From NCBI GenBank assembly GCA_934394615.1, contig CAKRRJ010000066.1, forward strand, positions 1 to 12,649: DNA of 12,649 nucleotides, read 5' to 3'. The position numbers were made by a program, and so were the translations under genes. Below are positions 4,075 through 8,096 of this stretch, piece after piece. Origin of the DNA: an uncultured Lachnospiraceae bacterium (lineage in GTDB: Bacteria; Bacillota; Clostridia; Lachnospirales; Lachnospiraceae). How positions within the stretch are numbered: position 1 is the first letter of the stretch; each line of letters begins with the position of its first letter. Under the pieces are notes generated by a model that saw only the letters and a program-made list of their open reading frames with translations, had not been told where the DNA came from and ran no database searches.

Positions 4075-4620
4075 CTACTCCTCTACTCTCGTCAGCTCTC
4101 CGGTCGCGGAATCCATGATAAATCCACTGATTCGCACATCCTTCGGCATAAGCGGATGCTCTTTCAGTCTGCGAACCGTCTCATGCACGGAAGACTCTAC
4201 AGATTCAAAGCCGCCGAGCCAGCGCTCAAGATTGATGCCGCTGTGACGCACAATGTCAATGTGCTGCTGATCGATGCCGCGCTCCACCAGCATATCCAGC
4301 ATCTCACTTCCATCCATGCCCTGCACGCCGCAGTCGGTATGGCCAATCACCATAACCTCTTCCACGCCAAGTTCCAGGATGCCGACTAACAGGCTCCGCA
4401 CCACACTGCCGTACGGATGAACGATCACGCCGCCTGCGTTCTTGATGATCTTGGCGTCGCCGTTTTTGATGCCAAGCGCCGCCGGAAGAAGCTCTAACAG
4501 GCGGGTATCCATACAGGTTAAGATTGCCAGTTTCTTGTCCGGATATTTGCTGGTCAGATATGGCTCGTAGCCCTTGTTCTCCACAAATTTCCGGTTGTAT
4601 TCCATAATTTCATCGATCAT
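4075..4620 (-). CDS. Beta-class carbonic anhydrase
   Basis: This zinc enzyme interconverts CO2 and bicarbonate in the cytoplasm. It has 181 residues, typical of the short bacterial beta class. The metal and catalytic residues are all present: Cys36, Asp38 and Arg40 in CMDTR, then His94 and Cys97 in GHTDCG. NAGG at 61-64 is also conserved in the family. The short form and its motifs resemble the clade that includes mycobacterial Rv1284. The start at 4620 has only a weak ribosome binding site (AAAGTGAG); Met6 is a possible alternative. It is transcribed from its own promoter (4694-4722) and ends at the bidirectional terminator at 3975-4018. It probably supplies bicarbonate for carboxylations or buffers pH; that role is inferred. 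Confidence 0.92.
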   Translation of the reverse strand: MIDEIMEYNRKFVENKGYEPYLTSKYPDKKLAILTCMDTRLLELLPAALGIKNGDAKIIKNAGGVIVHPYGSVVRSLLVGILELGVEEVMVIGHTDCGVQGMDGSEMLDMLVERGIDQQHIDIVRHSGINLERWLGGFESVESSVHETVRRLKEHPLMPKDVRISGFIMDSATGELTRVEE

Positions 4621-4813: not shown

Positions 4814-6604
4814 TTAATTTTCTGGCGCTGTCGGCTTATCCACCGCATGGCCTTCCTGCGCAGCTGTTGTTTCCGCTGCTGTGGTATTCTCCGAAGATGC
4901 CGGCTGCTCTGCCGATGTTGTTTTCTCTGCTGCTGTCGTTTTTTCTGCAGATGCCGGTTTCTCTGCCGCCGTAGTCTTCTCCGCAGATGTCGTTTTCTCT
5001 GCTGTTGTGCTCTTCTCTGCGGCTGTCGTCTTTTCCGAAGCAGTTGATTTTTCTGCTGCCGTGGTCTTCTCCGTAGCGTTCTTTTTATCTGCCGCCGAGC
5101 TTTCCGGTGCTACTTTCTGGCCCGGAACATATCCGTCCGGCATGCCGTCCACTGTTGCTGCCGCCGTAGTCTTTGCCGCCGCAGAAGTTCCTGCTGTCTG
5201 TATTTTTCCGGTATTGCGCCGGATCACTGCCGCGTGGCCCTTATATTCCTTGGAGTGGTCTTCGGTCCGCTCCACAACCTCGCCGTTTTTCTTCACCACT
5301 TTGTAGGTGATCCAGCGGCTTCCGTTGGTTCCTGCCTTTTTTACCACTTCCGTTCCCGGTGCCAGCGTCGAATCTTCCTCGTAAGTTGGATCTGGCGGTG
5401 GAAGCTCCTCCACCTTTTCCGATTCCAGGCTCCAGGTAACGCCATCTTCCAGAACCGGAACGCCATAGATTGCTACCGTGGTTTTCCGGTCGCTGTAGCT
5501 CGCCCGGATGCCGATTGCCGCATCCGACGTATTGATAAAGCGGAAATCCGGATAATCCCAGCTGATGGCCGCATCCTGCCCCGGTGTGACATAGTTCGGC
5601 TCAAACGTATGGGATCTCCGGTAAGTGATGCTCATGCCCGACTGGAACGCAACCCGGTACAGCGTCGAGGAAACCTGGCAGACGCCGCCGCCCAGCTCCT
5701 GGACCACCTCACCGCTGTTGTAGGCTGCCGCCTCCTGAAATCCCTTCTCCGCGGTTCTCGGTCCCACAATCTTATTAAAGGAAAATTCCTCTCCCGGTTT
5801 TACAATGGTTCCGTTTATTGCCTCCGCCGCAAGACGCACATTGGTATTTCGCTTTTCGTTCGCAGTTGTCTCTGTTGTAAATGTGGCAAGCTTCTCGTAA
5901 CGCGCCCGCGCCTCTGCCTCCGAATACTCCGGCTGCACGGTGTCTGCCTCCACAGCAATGACTGCATCATATGTGCCATTCAGCGCCGCATCCGTCAGGG
6001 CAGAAGCCAGTTTTTCCTGATTTACCTCCGTTCCCGCGGTTCCTTCCGAAAACAGGAACTTGTCGTTTGCCGCATCATAATCGTAAATCTCACTGTTCTT
6101 CGCCTTGACATCCCAGACAGCGGCAATCTTCTCCGCAGCGGCCTTCGCACTCTCCCGGAGTGTCTCCGAATCTTCCACCACAAAAGTGTAATCCCCCGCC
6201 GCCTTTACTGTACAGATTCCATCCAGAAATGCATCCAGCTCCGCATCCAGAATGTTATCTGCCTCCAGGGTCTCTCCGTTATCGCTCACCGTGACCTTCC
6301 ACGGAAACATTTCCGCAATGGCCGCCTTCGCCTCCTCGCGGGTCATCCCCGTCAGGGAAATGCCATTCACCCGGATATCATCCGAAGCAAAGGTCGTTTC
6401 GATCACAGTGCTGCTTTCTGCCTCTGCTGTCGTGCCCTTTTTCCCAGCAACCATACAGGCTGCAGCAAACGCCACGATCACAACCGCCACTACAGCGCCT
6501 CCGACCATCATCCGCTCCCGCTGTACCCGCTTTTTCCGCATCTGTTCCACCCGCTTCATTGCAGGGGATTTTTCTCTGTAAGAATGTTTCTCTGTATCCC
6601 GCAT
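4814..6604 (-). CDS. Membrane-anchored VanW-domain protein with G5-like domain and repeat tail
   Basis: This is a cell-envelope protein of unknown biochemical function. From the ATG at 6604 it has 596 residues: a basic cytoplasmic N-terminus, one membrane segment at about 32-54, a PG_binding_4-like region at about 75-230, a VanW domain at about 250-385 (FNKIVGPRTAEKGF, then GGGVCQVSSTLYRVAF), a G5-like beta domain at about 410-467 (STLAPGTEVV, then VVKKNGEVVERT), and a Thr/Ala/Glu/Lys tail with 12 six-residue repeats at 511-582. The layout suggests a type II membrane protein with domains outside the cell near peptidoglycan. VanW domains occur in some vancomycin-resistance clusters, but no van ligase genes are here. 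The start is ambiguous: an in-frame ATG at 6631 adds nine residues but lies only about six bases from the predicted transcription start, whereas 6604 has AAAAAGGA at 6615-6622, ten bases upstream. Confidence 0.85.
   Translation of the reverse strand: MRDTEKHSYREKSPAMKRVEQMRKKRVQRERMMVGGAVVAVVIVAFAAACMVAGKKGTTAEAESSTVIETTFASDDIRVNGISLTGMTREEAKAAIAEMFPWKVTVSDNGETLEADNILDAELDAFLDGICTVKAAGDYTFVVEDSETLRESAKAAAEKIAAVWDVKAKNSEIYDYDAANDKFLFSEGTAGTEVNQEKLASALTDAALNGTYDAVIAVEADTVQPEYSEAEARARYEKLATFTTETTANEKRNTNVRLAAEAINGTIVKPGEEFSFNKIVGPRTAEKGFQEAAAYNSGEVVQELGGGVCQVSSTLYRVAFQSGMSITYRRSHTFEPNYVTPGQDAAISWDYPDFRFINTSDAAIGIRASYSDRKTTVAIYGVPVLEDGVTWSLESEKVEELPPPDPTYEEDSTLAPGTEVVKKAGTNGSRWITYKVVKKNGEVVERTEDHSKEYKGHAAVIRRNTGKIQTAGTSAAAKTTAAATVDGMPDGYVPGQKVAPESSAADKKNATEKTTAAEKSTASEKTTAAEKSTTAEKTTSAEKTTAAEKPASAEKTTAAEKTTSAEQPASSENTTAAETTAAQEGHAVDKPTAPEN
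4859..5074 (-). repeat. 12-copy 18-bp tandem repeat coding for AEKTTA-like units
   Basis: Within the VanW-protein gene, 216 bp encode twelve in-register six-residue units: TEKTTA, AEKSTA, SEKTTA, AEKSTT, AEKTTS, AEKTTA, AEKPAS, AEKTTA, AEKTTS, AEQPAS, SENTTA and AETTAA. The copies are degenerate, more so towards the C-terminus. The length is a multiple of three per unit, so copy-number change would keep the frame. The likely role is a flexible, charged spacer or wall-contact tail. Confidence 0.85.
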
Positions 6605-6643
6605 ATCTGTCCGATCCTTTTTAGTTCTCATATTTTTTCCACA

Positions 6644-6716: not shown

Positions 6717-7913
6717 CTATTCCTTCTCCAACAGCTTCTCAAACGTACTGTCCATTCCCAGCGCTCCGAGTGGGGCAGTAATCAAAATTGCCATGACCGC
6801 CACGGAAAGCACAATCTGACCACAGGGAAGCCCCATAGCCATCGGCACGGAACCAATTGCAGCCTGCACGGTAGCCTTTGGCAGATACGCAATAACACAG
6901 AACAGGCGCTCTTTCCAGTTTAATGCTGTTCCCACAAGGCAAAGCAGCACACCCACGGTGCGGAATAACAGTGCGGTAAAGATCATGAGAACTGCTGCCA
7001 GTCCTGCTCCCATCGTGTAGCGGATATCCACCGCTGCACCCACCAGCACAAACAGCAGCACTTCTGCCGCCAGCCACAGCTTGCCAAACTTCTCAGACAG
7101 GCGTGCCGACACTGCTTTGATGCTGCGCAGCTTCAGCACACAGGCCATGCCGACCACAGCCAGAAGTCCGGATACGGAAATATACGGCTTTACCCAGGTT
7201 TCCACCGACATGAGCAGGAAAGAAACGCCCAGTACAATGATCACCTTTATGCTGTTGCGGACGTAATGCTCTTTTGCGTAAGCCGTCTCGAAAAACAGAC
7301 TTAACAGCCATCCTGCTGCCGCGCCAAGCAGAATGCCGCTCACAATGGATACCGGAATATTAGCAAAATCCATCAGTTTCGCGCTTCCGCCCTGTGCCAT
7401 GCCGGAAAACGTAGAGAACAGCACAATGACAAAGATATCATCACACGATGCCCCAGCCAGAATCATTTGTGGGATGCTCTTTTTTGTGCCATATCCGGTC
7501 TCTATGAGCTTTACCATGCGCGGAACCACCACCGCCGGAGAAACCGCCGCCAGCACTGCGCCCATCACAGCTGCCTCAATACGATTCACCCCAAGGATCA
7601 TGGGCGCAAACAGCACATAGCCCAACAGCTCAAAGCTCGCCGGTACACAGGCCATCATCACTGCAGGCCGTCCTACCTTCTTTAAATCTGCCAGATTCAG
7701 AGACAGTCCGGCCTTAATCAGAATGATGATGAGCGCCATCTGGCGCAGTTCCGATGAAATCGAAAGAATGGACGGTTCCAGAAGATCCAGCACATAAGGC
7801 CCCAGCACAATGCCGGTCAGGAGCATTCCGATGATGCGCGGCAGCCGGATGCGCTGGCAGATGGCCGCCATCGCCAGGCCGACCAGAAAAATAAATGAAA
7901 GTGACGTTAACAT
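6717..7913 (-). CDS. Cation/proton antiporter under fluoride riboswitch control
   Basis: This is a multi-pass membrane transporter of the monovalent cation:proton antiporter superfamily (Na_H_Exchanger fold), 398 residues with about 11-13 hydrophobic segments. It begins LTSLSFIFLVGLAMAAICQRI and includes the family's RIIGMLLTGIVLGP segment near 26-39. The ion-binding helix has a paired aspartate, Asp158-Asp159 in GASCDDIF, and Lys346 sits in the late helix AYLPKATVQ. In characterised relatives the DD pair plus lysine is found in electrogenic CPA2-type exchangers, while CPA1 proteins usually have ND. The start at 7913 is fixed by AAGGAGG at 7921-7927, seven bases upstream; a longer in-frame start would run through the terminator. 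The leader contains a fluoride riboswitch. Fluoride riboswitches are known to precede Na+/H+ antiporter genes as well as crcB, so a role in fluoride or acid stress tolerance is likely. The transported ion is not shown. Confidence 0.88.
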   Translation of the reverse strand: MLTSLSFIFLVGLAMAAICQRIRLPRIIGMLLTGIVLGPYVLDLLEPSILSISSELRQMALIIILIKAGLSLNLADLKKVGRPAVMMACVPASFELLGYVLFAPMILGVNRIEAAVMGAVLAAVSPAVVVPRMVKLIETGYGTKKSIPQMILAGASCDDIFVIVLFSTFSGMAQGGSAKLMDFANIPVSIVSGILLGAAAGWLLSLFFETAYAKEHYVRNSIKVIIVLGVSFLLMSVETWVKPYISVSGLLAVVGMACVLKLRSIKAVSARLSEKFGKLWLAAEVLLFVLVGAAVDIRYTMGAGLAAVLMIFTALLFRTVGVLLCLVGTALNWKERLFCVIAYLPKATVQAAIGSVPMAMGLPCGQIVLSVAVMAILITAPLGALGMDSTFEKLLEKE

Positions 7914-7968
7914 ATTTCTTCCTCCTTTTTCTCGCGCGGGAATGTCCGGACAAGAATCCACAACACGC

Positions 7969-8019
7969 AAAAAAAGCTGATAACCCCTGTGATGTTTACT
8001 CACAGAAGTCATCAGCTTT
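7969..8019 (-). terminator. Expression-platform terminator of the fluoride riboswitch
   Basis: On the minus strand, a 5' arm (8019-8000) pairs over 20 positions, three of them G-U, with a 3' arm (7992-7973) around a 7-nt loop. A run of seven T follows (7975-7969). The 5' arm contains the 3' strand of aptamer P3 (AAGC) and the 3' strand of the pseudoknot (ACTTC), so aptamer and terminator cannot coexist. It would also stop read-through from the opp-GNAT operon when fluoride is absent. Confidence 0.87.
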
Positions 8020-8061
8020 GTATAAGCGGTTCTGGTTTCCCAAGGGAGAACTTCATTCCCT
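8004..8061 (-). ncRNA. Fluoride riboswitch aptamer (crcB motif)
   Basis: Read on the minus strand, the leader shows the elements of the crcB/fluoride motif in order. P2 is AGGGA (8061-8057) with TCCCT (8047-8043), enclosing the conserved ATG..GTTC loop. Pseudoknot P1 is GAAGTT (8054-8049) with GACTTC (8010-8005). The AACCGC segment is at 8031-8026. P3 is GCTT (8027-8024) with AAGC (8018-8015), then the conserved CTGATGACTTCTG. A small TGG-GAAA-CCA hairpin (8042-8033) sits between P2 and P3. Identification rests on matching the known T. petrophila and consensus patterns from memory. The downstream terminator and antiporter gene fit the class. Confidence 0.88.
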
Positions 8062-8067
8062 GTCGGT

Positions 8068-8096
8068 ATTCTACTTTATTTTTCCAGATCTGTAAA
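8068..8096 (-). promoter_or_regulatory. Promoter of the riboswitch-antiporter unit
   Basis: On the minus strand, -35 TTTACA (8096-8091) and -10 TAGAAT (8073-8068) are separated by exactly 17 bp. Transcription would start at about 8061, directly at the first base of aptamer P2. The -35 begins only 17 nt after the stop codon of the upstream GNAT gene. Confidence 0.8.

What the first reader, a model, noticed from the sequence alone, without database searches (positions are those of the whole stretch)
7914..8096. Fluoride riboswitch controlling a cation/proton antiporter
The antiporter leader shows a promoter, a crcB-type aptamer (P2, pseudoknot P1, P3, conserved CTGATGACTTCTG) and an overlapping terminator with a T7 tail. 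Shared strands make the two folds exclusive, predicting transcription ON with fluoride. Fluoride riboswitches are known upstream of crcB, CLC-F and some antiporter genes. Here no crcB or CLC-F is in the window, so the antiporter may be a main fluoride-response output at this locus.
Basis: partly seen in the sequence, partly recalled or inferred. Interest (0 to 1): 0.8.

Follow-up and report, generated by a model that had tools for sequence, protein, structure and literature searches.

The report
Fluoride-sensing RNA switch controlling an antiporter
A gut-type bacterium carries a standard fluoride-sensing RNA switch in front of a sodium/proton-type antiporter gene, and in related bacteria this pair tends to occur where the two known bacterial fluoride exporters were not found, so the antiporter may stand in for them.

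Summary
The riboswitch is real. Rfam RF01734 matches 8069-7996 (-) at 50.7 bits (cut-off 34), with a promoter-like site before it and an overlapping terminator. Pseudoknot P1 and the terminator need the same strand in 45 aligned sequences, which predicts transcription ON with fluoride. The gene is a CPA2/NHA-type antiporter, closest among solved structures to NHA2. Fluoride riboswitches before Na+/H+ antiporters are already known (review PMC11139923, passages).

New here is the strength of the link. The aptamer precedes the antiporter in 70 of 80 related loci (one untestable), at 49 of 69 riboswitch sites in 295 genomes, before 17 of 18 antiporters in a second order, and in 10 of 10 listed plasmid homologues, not all independent. 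crcB or a CLC-F was found in 2 of 98 antiporter genomes, against 76 of 300 others. In the first order this holds on a tree of 120 genomes (0 shared, 7.5 expected, P 0.0002). The second order alone is not significant. The antiporter may be the main fluoride defence; whether it moves cations or fluoride is untested.

The parts
8068..8096 (-). sigma-70-type promoter-like site, TTTACA-17-TAGAAT
   Evidence: 10 of 12 consensus matches; a consensus match, not proof
7996..8069 (-). fluoride riboswitch aptamer (RF01734), full-length match
   Evidence: 50.7 bits, gathering score 34, E 8.4e-12
8044..8060 (-). aptamer hairpin P2 (GGGA/TCCC); its loop holds the 5' strand of pseudoknot P1 (GAAGT, 8054-8050)
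   Evidence: the four P2 pairs are invariant in 45 of 45 sequences
8005..8009 (-). 3' strand of pseudoknot P1 (ACTTC); also part of the terminator's 5' arm
8015..8027 (-). aptamer hairpin P3 (GCTT, 8027-8024, with AAGC, 8018-8015); its 3' strand starts the terminator's 5' arm
7969..8019 (-). intrinsic terminator overlapping the aptamer (stem 8019-7973) and run of seven T (7975-7969)
   Evidence: alignment control
7921..7926 (-). ribosome binding site AGGAGG
   Evidence: sequence
6717..7913 (-). CPA2/NHA-type cation:proton antiporter, 398 aa
   Evidence: PF00999, 148.6 bits; best solved relatives are NHA2/SLC9B2

Best explanation
This is a fluoride-ON transcriptional riboswitch that drives an NHA-type cation:proton antiporter gene. 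Without fluoride the nascent RNA forms the long terminator hairpin and transcription stops. With Mg2+ and fluoride the aptamer, held by pseudoknot P1, keeps the ACUUC strand away from the terminator and RNA polymerase reads on into the antiporter (folds and conservation shown; the ligand effect is inferred from the family). In the related Clostridia examined, the switch-antiporter pair is usually the genome's only over-cut-off fluoride riboswitch and occurs mostly where Fluc/CrcB and CLC-F were not found (shown for the samples). The likeliest role is that exchange of Na+ or K+ for H+ changes cytoplasmic pH or the pH gradient, and so limits the trapping or the toxicity of HF well enough to make a dedicated exporter dispensable (inferred).
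For: RF01734 match; promoter-like site and overlapping terminator. P1 formed in 99.6% and terminator pairs in 90.4% of cells over 45 sequences; the terminator slid by 1-3 columns gives 32-57%. 70 of 80 relative loci carry the aptamer upstream; L014 was too short to judge. 59 of the 67 of these with a T run fold at -12 kcal/mol or better. Order of G015 (295 genomes): 49 of 69 over-cut-off sites lie upstream of this antiporter on the same strand within 3 kb. Order of G006 (103 genomes): 17 of 18 antiporters have a site 45-162 nt upstream. Ten of ten listed plasmid homologues at 34-55% identity have one. Exporters: 2 of 80 against 66 of 215 and 0 of 18 against 10 of 85; stratified exact P 1.4e-9, not corrected for kinship; tree simulation in the first order P 0.0002-0.0009 under three branch-length choices. 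crcB alone, the firmer half: 0 of 80 against 43 of 215, tree P 0.006. Residues of the NHA2 cation site are kept: D158 and R318 in 119 of 119 distinct homologues, D159 in 117 of 119, K346 in 117 of 117 that reach it.
Against: No fluoride binding or expression data exist for this leader. Thirty of 81 antiporters in the 295-genome sample have no riboswitch paired with them; a rescan found one weak site, and one of the thirty had only about 155 nt upstream. 149 of 295 genomes have neither antiporter nor exporter, so lacking an exporter is common. CLC-F alone is weak: 2 of 80 against 23 of 215, P 0.03, tree P 0.04; with antiporters of 50% identity or more P 0.12. In the first order CLC-F was called by identity to one CLC-F, and only 5 of about 100 lower-identity CLC matches were motif-checked, so GNNLI-type CLC-F like that of G331 (37% identity) could be missed. 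The second order alone is not significant (P 0.20). Riboswitch-linked antiporters only: tree P 0.01. A proton-importing antiporter does not obviously relieve acid stress, so the physiological direction is unsettled.
Confidence: 0.62

Rival explanations
1. The antiporter is itself a fluoride exporter: an NHA-fold protein that moves F- (or HF) against protons or with a cation, a third bacterial export family beside Fluc and CLC-F.
For: It is rarely found with crcB or CLC-F. Over both orders 83 of 92 over-cut-off riboswitch sites lead to antiporter, CLC-F or crcB, as if these were alternatives. crcB and CLC-F also avoid each other in the first order (0 of 295 with both, 3.6 expected, P 0.03). Fusobacterial homologues have the riboswitch, and the review names Fusobacteria among examples of bacteria lacking exporters; I did not test those genomes for exporters. 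Two riboswitch-linked homologues have Gly at the second Asp of the ion site.
Against: The two-Asp cation site, Arg318, Lys346 and the NHA2-type Glu95 and Thr348 are conserved. In the second order one genome, G331, has both crcB and a CLC-F. No NHA-fold fluoride exporter appeared in the listings of my searches (some lists capped).
Confidence: 0.25
2. The antiporter is only an accessory pH/Na+ homeostasis gene; the exclusion reflects niche, or another exporter (for example the CLC branch with GREGA/GEIVP motifs) does the export.
For: This is the reading in the review PMC11139923 (passages). C. difficile has a CLC-type gene and an antiporter together in one riboswitch operon (PMC11477304, passages). 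One GREGA-type CLC tested is nearest to CLC-F among solved structures (177 against 46 bits). CLCs of the lower-identity group occur in 34 of 80 antiporter genomes (27 expected), and are enriched with antiporters of 50% identity or more (31 of 64, 22 expected, P 0.01).
Against: An accessory gene should accompany exporters, not avoid them. None of the ten riboswitch-run CLCs read in the first order is of the GREGA type, and GREGA lacks the published CLC-F signature. 46 of 80 antiporter genomes lack even this group. On the tree it is neither excluded nor significantly enriched (P 0.28 for enrichment).
Confidence: 0.3
3. The leader acts as an OFF switch, as a translational switch, or is a decayed aptamer.
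For: None found.
Against: The aptamer match is full length and the core columns agree with relatives. The terminator overlaps P3 and P1, and the RBS lies outside both folds.
Confidence: 0.03

Closest known systems
Fluoride riboswitch (crcB motif, RF01734) with transcription terminator
   Same: Aptamer core, P1 pseudoknot, P2, P3 and terminator overlap.
   Different: Nothing essential; there is a 9-nt insertion relative to the Rfam consensus between P2 and P3. The controlled gene is an antiporter, not crcB or CLC-F.
Fluoride-riboswitch-linked Na+/H+ antiporters (PMC11139923, citing Baker 2012, calls them the next most common gene class after exporters; the Baker paper is not held)
   Same: Same regulator and gene class.
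   Different: Here the subfamily is identified as NHA2-like, and it avoids crcB and CLC-F in the sampled genomes, which I did not see stated in the passages read.
NHA2/SLC9B2 and other CPA2 antiporters
   Same: Long homology (E 6.5e-36 to NHA2), Asp-Asp motif, Arg318, Lys346, Glu95, Thr348 aligned with NHA2 residues.
   Different: The match starts at query residue 23 and chain residue 142, so the N-terminal extension of NHA2 seems absent (inference). Transport not tested.
CLC-F and Fluc fluoride exporters
   Same: The same riboswitch class controls them in other genomes of the same orders.
   Different: Unrelated protein families.

Membership tests
Fluoride riboswitch RF01734 | covariance-model score over the gathering score, full length | tested here: met
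   50.7 against 34 bits, positions 1-64 of 64
Fluoride riboswitch RF01734 | P1 pseudoknot plus P2 and P3 | tested here: met
   P1 99.6%, P2 100%, P3 92.2% of cells paired in 45 sequences; little covariation because the columns hardly vary
Fluoride riboswitch RF01734 | expression platform that competes with the aptamer | tested here: met
   terminator 5' arm contains the P3 3' strand and the P1 3' strand
Fluoride riboswitch RF01734 | Mg2+/F- binding and fluoride-induced expression | not testable with these tools
   needs in-line probing or a reporter
CPA2/NHA cation:proton antiporters | PF00999 domain over cut-off | tested here: met
   148.6 against 26.2 bits
CPA2/NHA cation:proton antiporters | Asp-Asp ion site and the Arg/Glu/Thr set of NHA2 | tested here: met
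   D158, D159, R318, E95, T348; D159 is Gly in 2 of 119 distinct homologues
CPA2/NHA cation:proton antiporters | Na+, Li+ or K+ exchange for H+ | not testable with these tools
   needs vesicles or liposomes
NCBIfam potassium/proton antiporter PRK05326 (equivalog) and CPA2 subfamily TIGR00932 | score over the curated cut-off | tested here: not met
   62.2 against 355 and 48.9 against 238.3 bits: not a member of those named models
CLC-F fluoride/proton antiporter | CLC fold with GNNLI/GMGLI, GREGT/V, GEVTP | tested here: not met
   the only Pfam family found in the protein is PF00999
Fluc/CrcB | PF02537 domain | tested here: not met

The most novel reading that the evidence does not exclude
Riboswitch-controlled NHA-type antiporters are a third, stand-alone bacterial fluoride-resistance system that replaces Fluc and CLC-F in many Clostridia, and perhaps in Fusobacteria and some cyanobacteria, acting either as a fluoride exporter or by collapsing the pH gradient that traps fluoride.
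Probability: 0.4. Interest if true: 0.82.

Novelty: new member of a known kind. Interest (0 to 1): 0.5.

Why it matters
Many of the sampled Clostridia hold a fluoride sensor but no detected fluoride exporter. If the antiporter is their defence, it is either a new way to export fluoride or a new way to survive without export, and a deletion or a heterologous complementation test would decide it. The survey also shows which gene the fluoride riboswitch most often controls in the two orders sampled.

Tried and rejected
Searching the window's own genome for RF01734 and crcB failed because it is not held. A loose pattern scan for the aptamer was replaced by a stricter one, because at five allowed mismatches it also accepted weak sites. 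Reading every CLC as a fluoride exporter was rejected: 16 of 22 CLCs in the first 30 genomes are a GREGA branch without the published CLC-F signature. A conserved downstream partner gene was looked for and not found: in 78 loci the largest shared downstream family had 5 members, in Flavonifractor, Pseudoflavonifractor or uncultured Oscillospiraceae records. Phage carriage: no near match. A structure prediction was not run: homology to NHA2 fixes the fold class, and a model would not settle the transported ion.

Full report
Observation. The leader of the antiporter on the minus strand holds a full-length match to the fluoride riboswitch, RF01734 (8069-7996, 50.7 bits, gathering score 34, E 8.4e-12), the only Rfam match over its cut-off in the window. 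A promoter-like site lies at 8096-8068 and a terminator-like stem at 8019-7973. The leader folds far better than its shuffles (z -6.0, 0 of 200 as good); the aptamer part alone does not (z 0.0), but that method leaves out the pseudoknot. The start codon is at 7913-7911 behind AGGAGG. The protein has 398 residues, Pfam PF00999 at 148.6 bits. Its best solved relatives are NHA2/SLC9B2 (E 6.5e-36), then prokaryotic Na+/H+ antiporters (these are NapA and NhaP1 by recall). It fails the curated cut-offs of the NCBIfam antiporter models that it matches.

Switch logic. In an alignment of the window with 44 of 57 distinct relatives that had a usable stretch (I left out 13) the core columns are nearly invariant. 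P2 pairs are invariant, P1 (GAAGU with ACUUC) is formed in 99.6% of cells and P3 in 92.2%. The terminator's 5' arm is the P3 3' strand followed by the P1 3' strand. Its 16 pairs are formed in 90.4% of cells, against 32-57% when slid by 1-3 columns. Change on both sides is slight (7 cells, 2 pairs; 0 of 500 shuffles reach 7 cells but 157 of 500 reach 2 pairs), as expected where one arm is fixed by the aptamer. For the aptamer helices no covariation measure stands out clearly from the shuffles. The two folds exclude each other, so bound fluoride should permit transcription. That is inference from the family; no binding data exist here.

The pair in relatives. One scan of GTDB genomes gave 263 relatives, of which the best 80 loci were kept, at 71-80% identity. 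Their record titles name Lachnospiraceae, Faecalibacterium, Pseudoflavonifractor, Faecalitalea, Anaerococcus and Negativicoccus among others; many are MAGs. By the strict pattern 70 of these 80 have the aptamer in the up to 500 nt upstream (71 of 81 with the window); L014 has only 33 nt upstream. 67 of the 70 have a run of five or more T within 90 nt, and in 59 of the 67 the stretch folds at -12 kcal/mol or better (the first T run was taken, so this undercounts). Downstream neighbours differ. Thirty of the 80 loci, picked by me with a leaning to named isolates and longer contigs, were followed to their genomes. 28 of 30 have an over-cut-off RF01734 site, one each, and all 28 sites lie beside the antiporter; one of these genomes has a second, sub-cut-off site without it. 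One of 30 has crcB. 21 of 30 have some CLC, 22 proteins: 3 resemble CLC-F by motif, 2 are chloride-type GREGP, 16 are GREGA, and 1 is different. So 26 of 30 showed neither crcB nor a CLC with CLC-F motifs.

Survey of one order. 295 genomes were drawn from the order of G015 (the genome of L049, titled Coprococcus catus; Lachnospirales in NCBI taxonomy). RF01734 passes its cut-off in 65 genomes, 69 sites (strict filters, so a lower bound). The antiporter query (E <= 1e-60) hits 80 genomes, 81 proteins, at 37-79% identity. 49 of the 69 sites lie within 3 kb upstream of an antiporter on the same strand; with sub-cut-off sites 51 pairs, 48 of them under 400 nt, and one (G320) with three genes in between. 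By identity band, 12 of 13 antiporters at 60% or more are paired, 34 of 52 at 50-60%, and 5 of 16 below 50%. The 30 unpaired antiporters were rescanned with permissive filters: one weak site (22.8 bits), 29 none, one of these with only about 155 nt upstream. Of the 20 unpaired sites, 10 lead to a CLC, all with GMxL[IV]/GREGV/GEVTP, and 3 to crcB; the other 7 are a contig end, other genes or undecided (Pfam run on 7 of the 10 CLCs).

Known exporters in the same genomes. crcB passes its cut-off in 43 of 295 (G240 has a 21-bit hit that I did not count). A CLC-F query finds 25 genomes at 49% identity or more; 23 of the 25 loci show GMxL/GREGV with GEVTP (one GEIYP) and two are fragments with one of the motifs. 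The other CLC matches, at 38% or less, lie in about 100 genomes; only 5 of these were motif-checked (three GREGA/GEIVP, two GEIVP only), so this group may hide some GNNLI-type CLC-F. 0 of 80 antiporter genomes have crcB and 2 of 80 (G214, G320) have CLC-F, against 43 and 23 of 215 others. Any exporter: 2 of 80 against 66 of 215, expected 18.4, Fisher P 1.5e-8. crcB alone P 4.4e-7; CLC-F alone P 0.03, and 0.12 for antiporters of 50% identity or more. The lower-identity CLC group shows no exclusion (34 of 80, expected 27; with antiporters of 50% or more 31 of 64, expected 22, P 0.01). To allow for kinship I built a tree from the rpoB domain PF00562 of 120 genomes: the top 120 by score of the 150 rows listed, out of 267 with a match, so not a random draw. 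44 have the antiporter, 21 an exporter, none both. Independent evolution on the tree gives a mean overlap of 7.5 and P 0.0002; other branch-length choices 0.0003-0.0009; crcB alone 0.006, CLC-F alone 0.04, antiporters of 50% or more 0.0025; riboswitch-linked antiporters only (25 and 21, none both) 0.01. Parsimony needs 20 and 16 changes of the two traits.

Second order. 103 genomes from the order of G006 (the genome of L022, titled Faecalibacterium prausnitzii): antiporter in 18, crcB in 9, CLC-F-like in 2 (G331 with GNNLI/GREGT/GEVTP and also crcB; G327 with GMALL/GREGV/GEVVP) after a motif look at all 26 CLC matches. None of the 10 exporter genomes has the antiporter (P 0.20 alone). Both orders together, stratified: 2 seen, 20.2 expected, P 1.4e-9, not corrected for kinship. 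17 of 18 antiporters have a riboswitch 45-162 nt upstream; the eighteenth (G388) has none in the 900 nt rescanned. The other six over-cut-off sites go to crcB (3), CLC-F (1), a second site upstream of an operon in G367 (1) and a contig end (1). Over both orders 83 of 92 over-cut-off sites lead to antiporter, CLC-F or crcB.

Wider spread. Among plasmid records, 12 hold a homologue over at least 80% of the query; the 10 listed were read. All ten have RF01734 over its cut-off upstream: Acetoanaerobium, Peptoclostridium, Ilyobacter, two Cetobacterium, three Picosynechococcus, Synechococcus NIES-970 and Leptolyngbya. Several are close kin, so they are perhaps six independent cases. In Peptoclostridium a CBS-domain gene lies between switch and antiporter; the two cyanobacterial proteins scanned carry a C-terminal Usp domain.

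What the protein may do. NHA2 has the Asp277-Asp278 ion site, Arg431 where electrogenic antiporters have a salt-bridging Lys, Glu214 and Thr461, and is electroneutral (PMC8850199, passages). The residues aligned with them here are D158, D159, R318, E95 and T348 (conservation). This speaks for a cation/H+ exchanger. Two distinct homologues have Gly at D159. HF enters and dissociates in the cytoplasm, so accumulation follows the pH gradient (established chemistry): an antiporter importing H+ would reduce trapping; one exporting H+ would relieve acid load but increase trapping. The review PMC11139923 (passages and section 11) gives the pH-homeostasis reading and says Na+/H+ antiporters are the next most common riboswitch-linked class after exporters, citing Baker 2012, which I could not read. 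It also says that Fluc and CLC-F are usually mutually exclusive. The pH reading does not predict that the antiporter avoids exporters. My literature searches (some lists capped) showed no paper whose title or abstract start reports this; most subscription papers and preprints are not in that library.

Limits. Completeness of the sampled genomes is unknown, many are probably MAGs, and missing genes lower all counts. Niche could drive both traits. The window's genome could not be searched. Function is untested.

Noticed in passing
L443 588-2289 (-) and L442 251-2091 (-): In one genome of each order (G320, G367) a fluoride riboswitch precedes two genes for a weakly NifU-like protein and a GGGtGRT protein (PF14057), followed by the antiporter (after a Usp gene in G320, after another riboswitch in G367). 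I recall no known function for GGGtGRT; a fluoride link would be a clue.
   Followed up: partly
L400, L405 and L443 141-539 (-): Universal stress protein domain fused to the riboswitch-linked antiporter in two cyanobacteria, and a separate Usp gene beside it in G320.
   Followed up: partly
L113-L120, L122-L126, L128-L130: A CLC branch with GREGA and mostly GEIVP motifs; the one member tested is nearest to CLC-F among solved structures, and none was seen behind a fluoride riboswitch at the sites I read. Its ion is unknown.
   Followed up: partly
L021 and L078/L085: Riboswitch-linked antiporters in which the second Asp of the Asp-Asp ion site is Gly.
   Followed up: no
L212, L220, L227 (G128:C1:3523-5178): Three fluoride riboswitch sites within 1.7 kb of one contig, around a crcB pair.
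   Followed up: no
4817-6631 (-): VanW-like/G5 protein with a long low-complexity Thr/Ala/Glu/Lys repeat tail.
   Followed up: no
4078-4620 (-): Carbonic-anhydrase-like protein (PF00484) two genes downstream of the antiporter.
   Followed up: no
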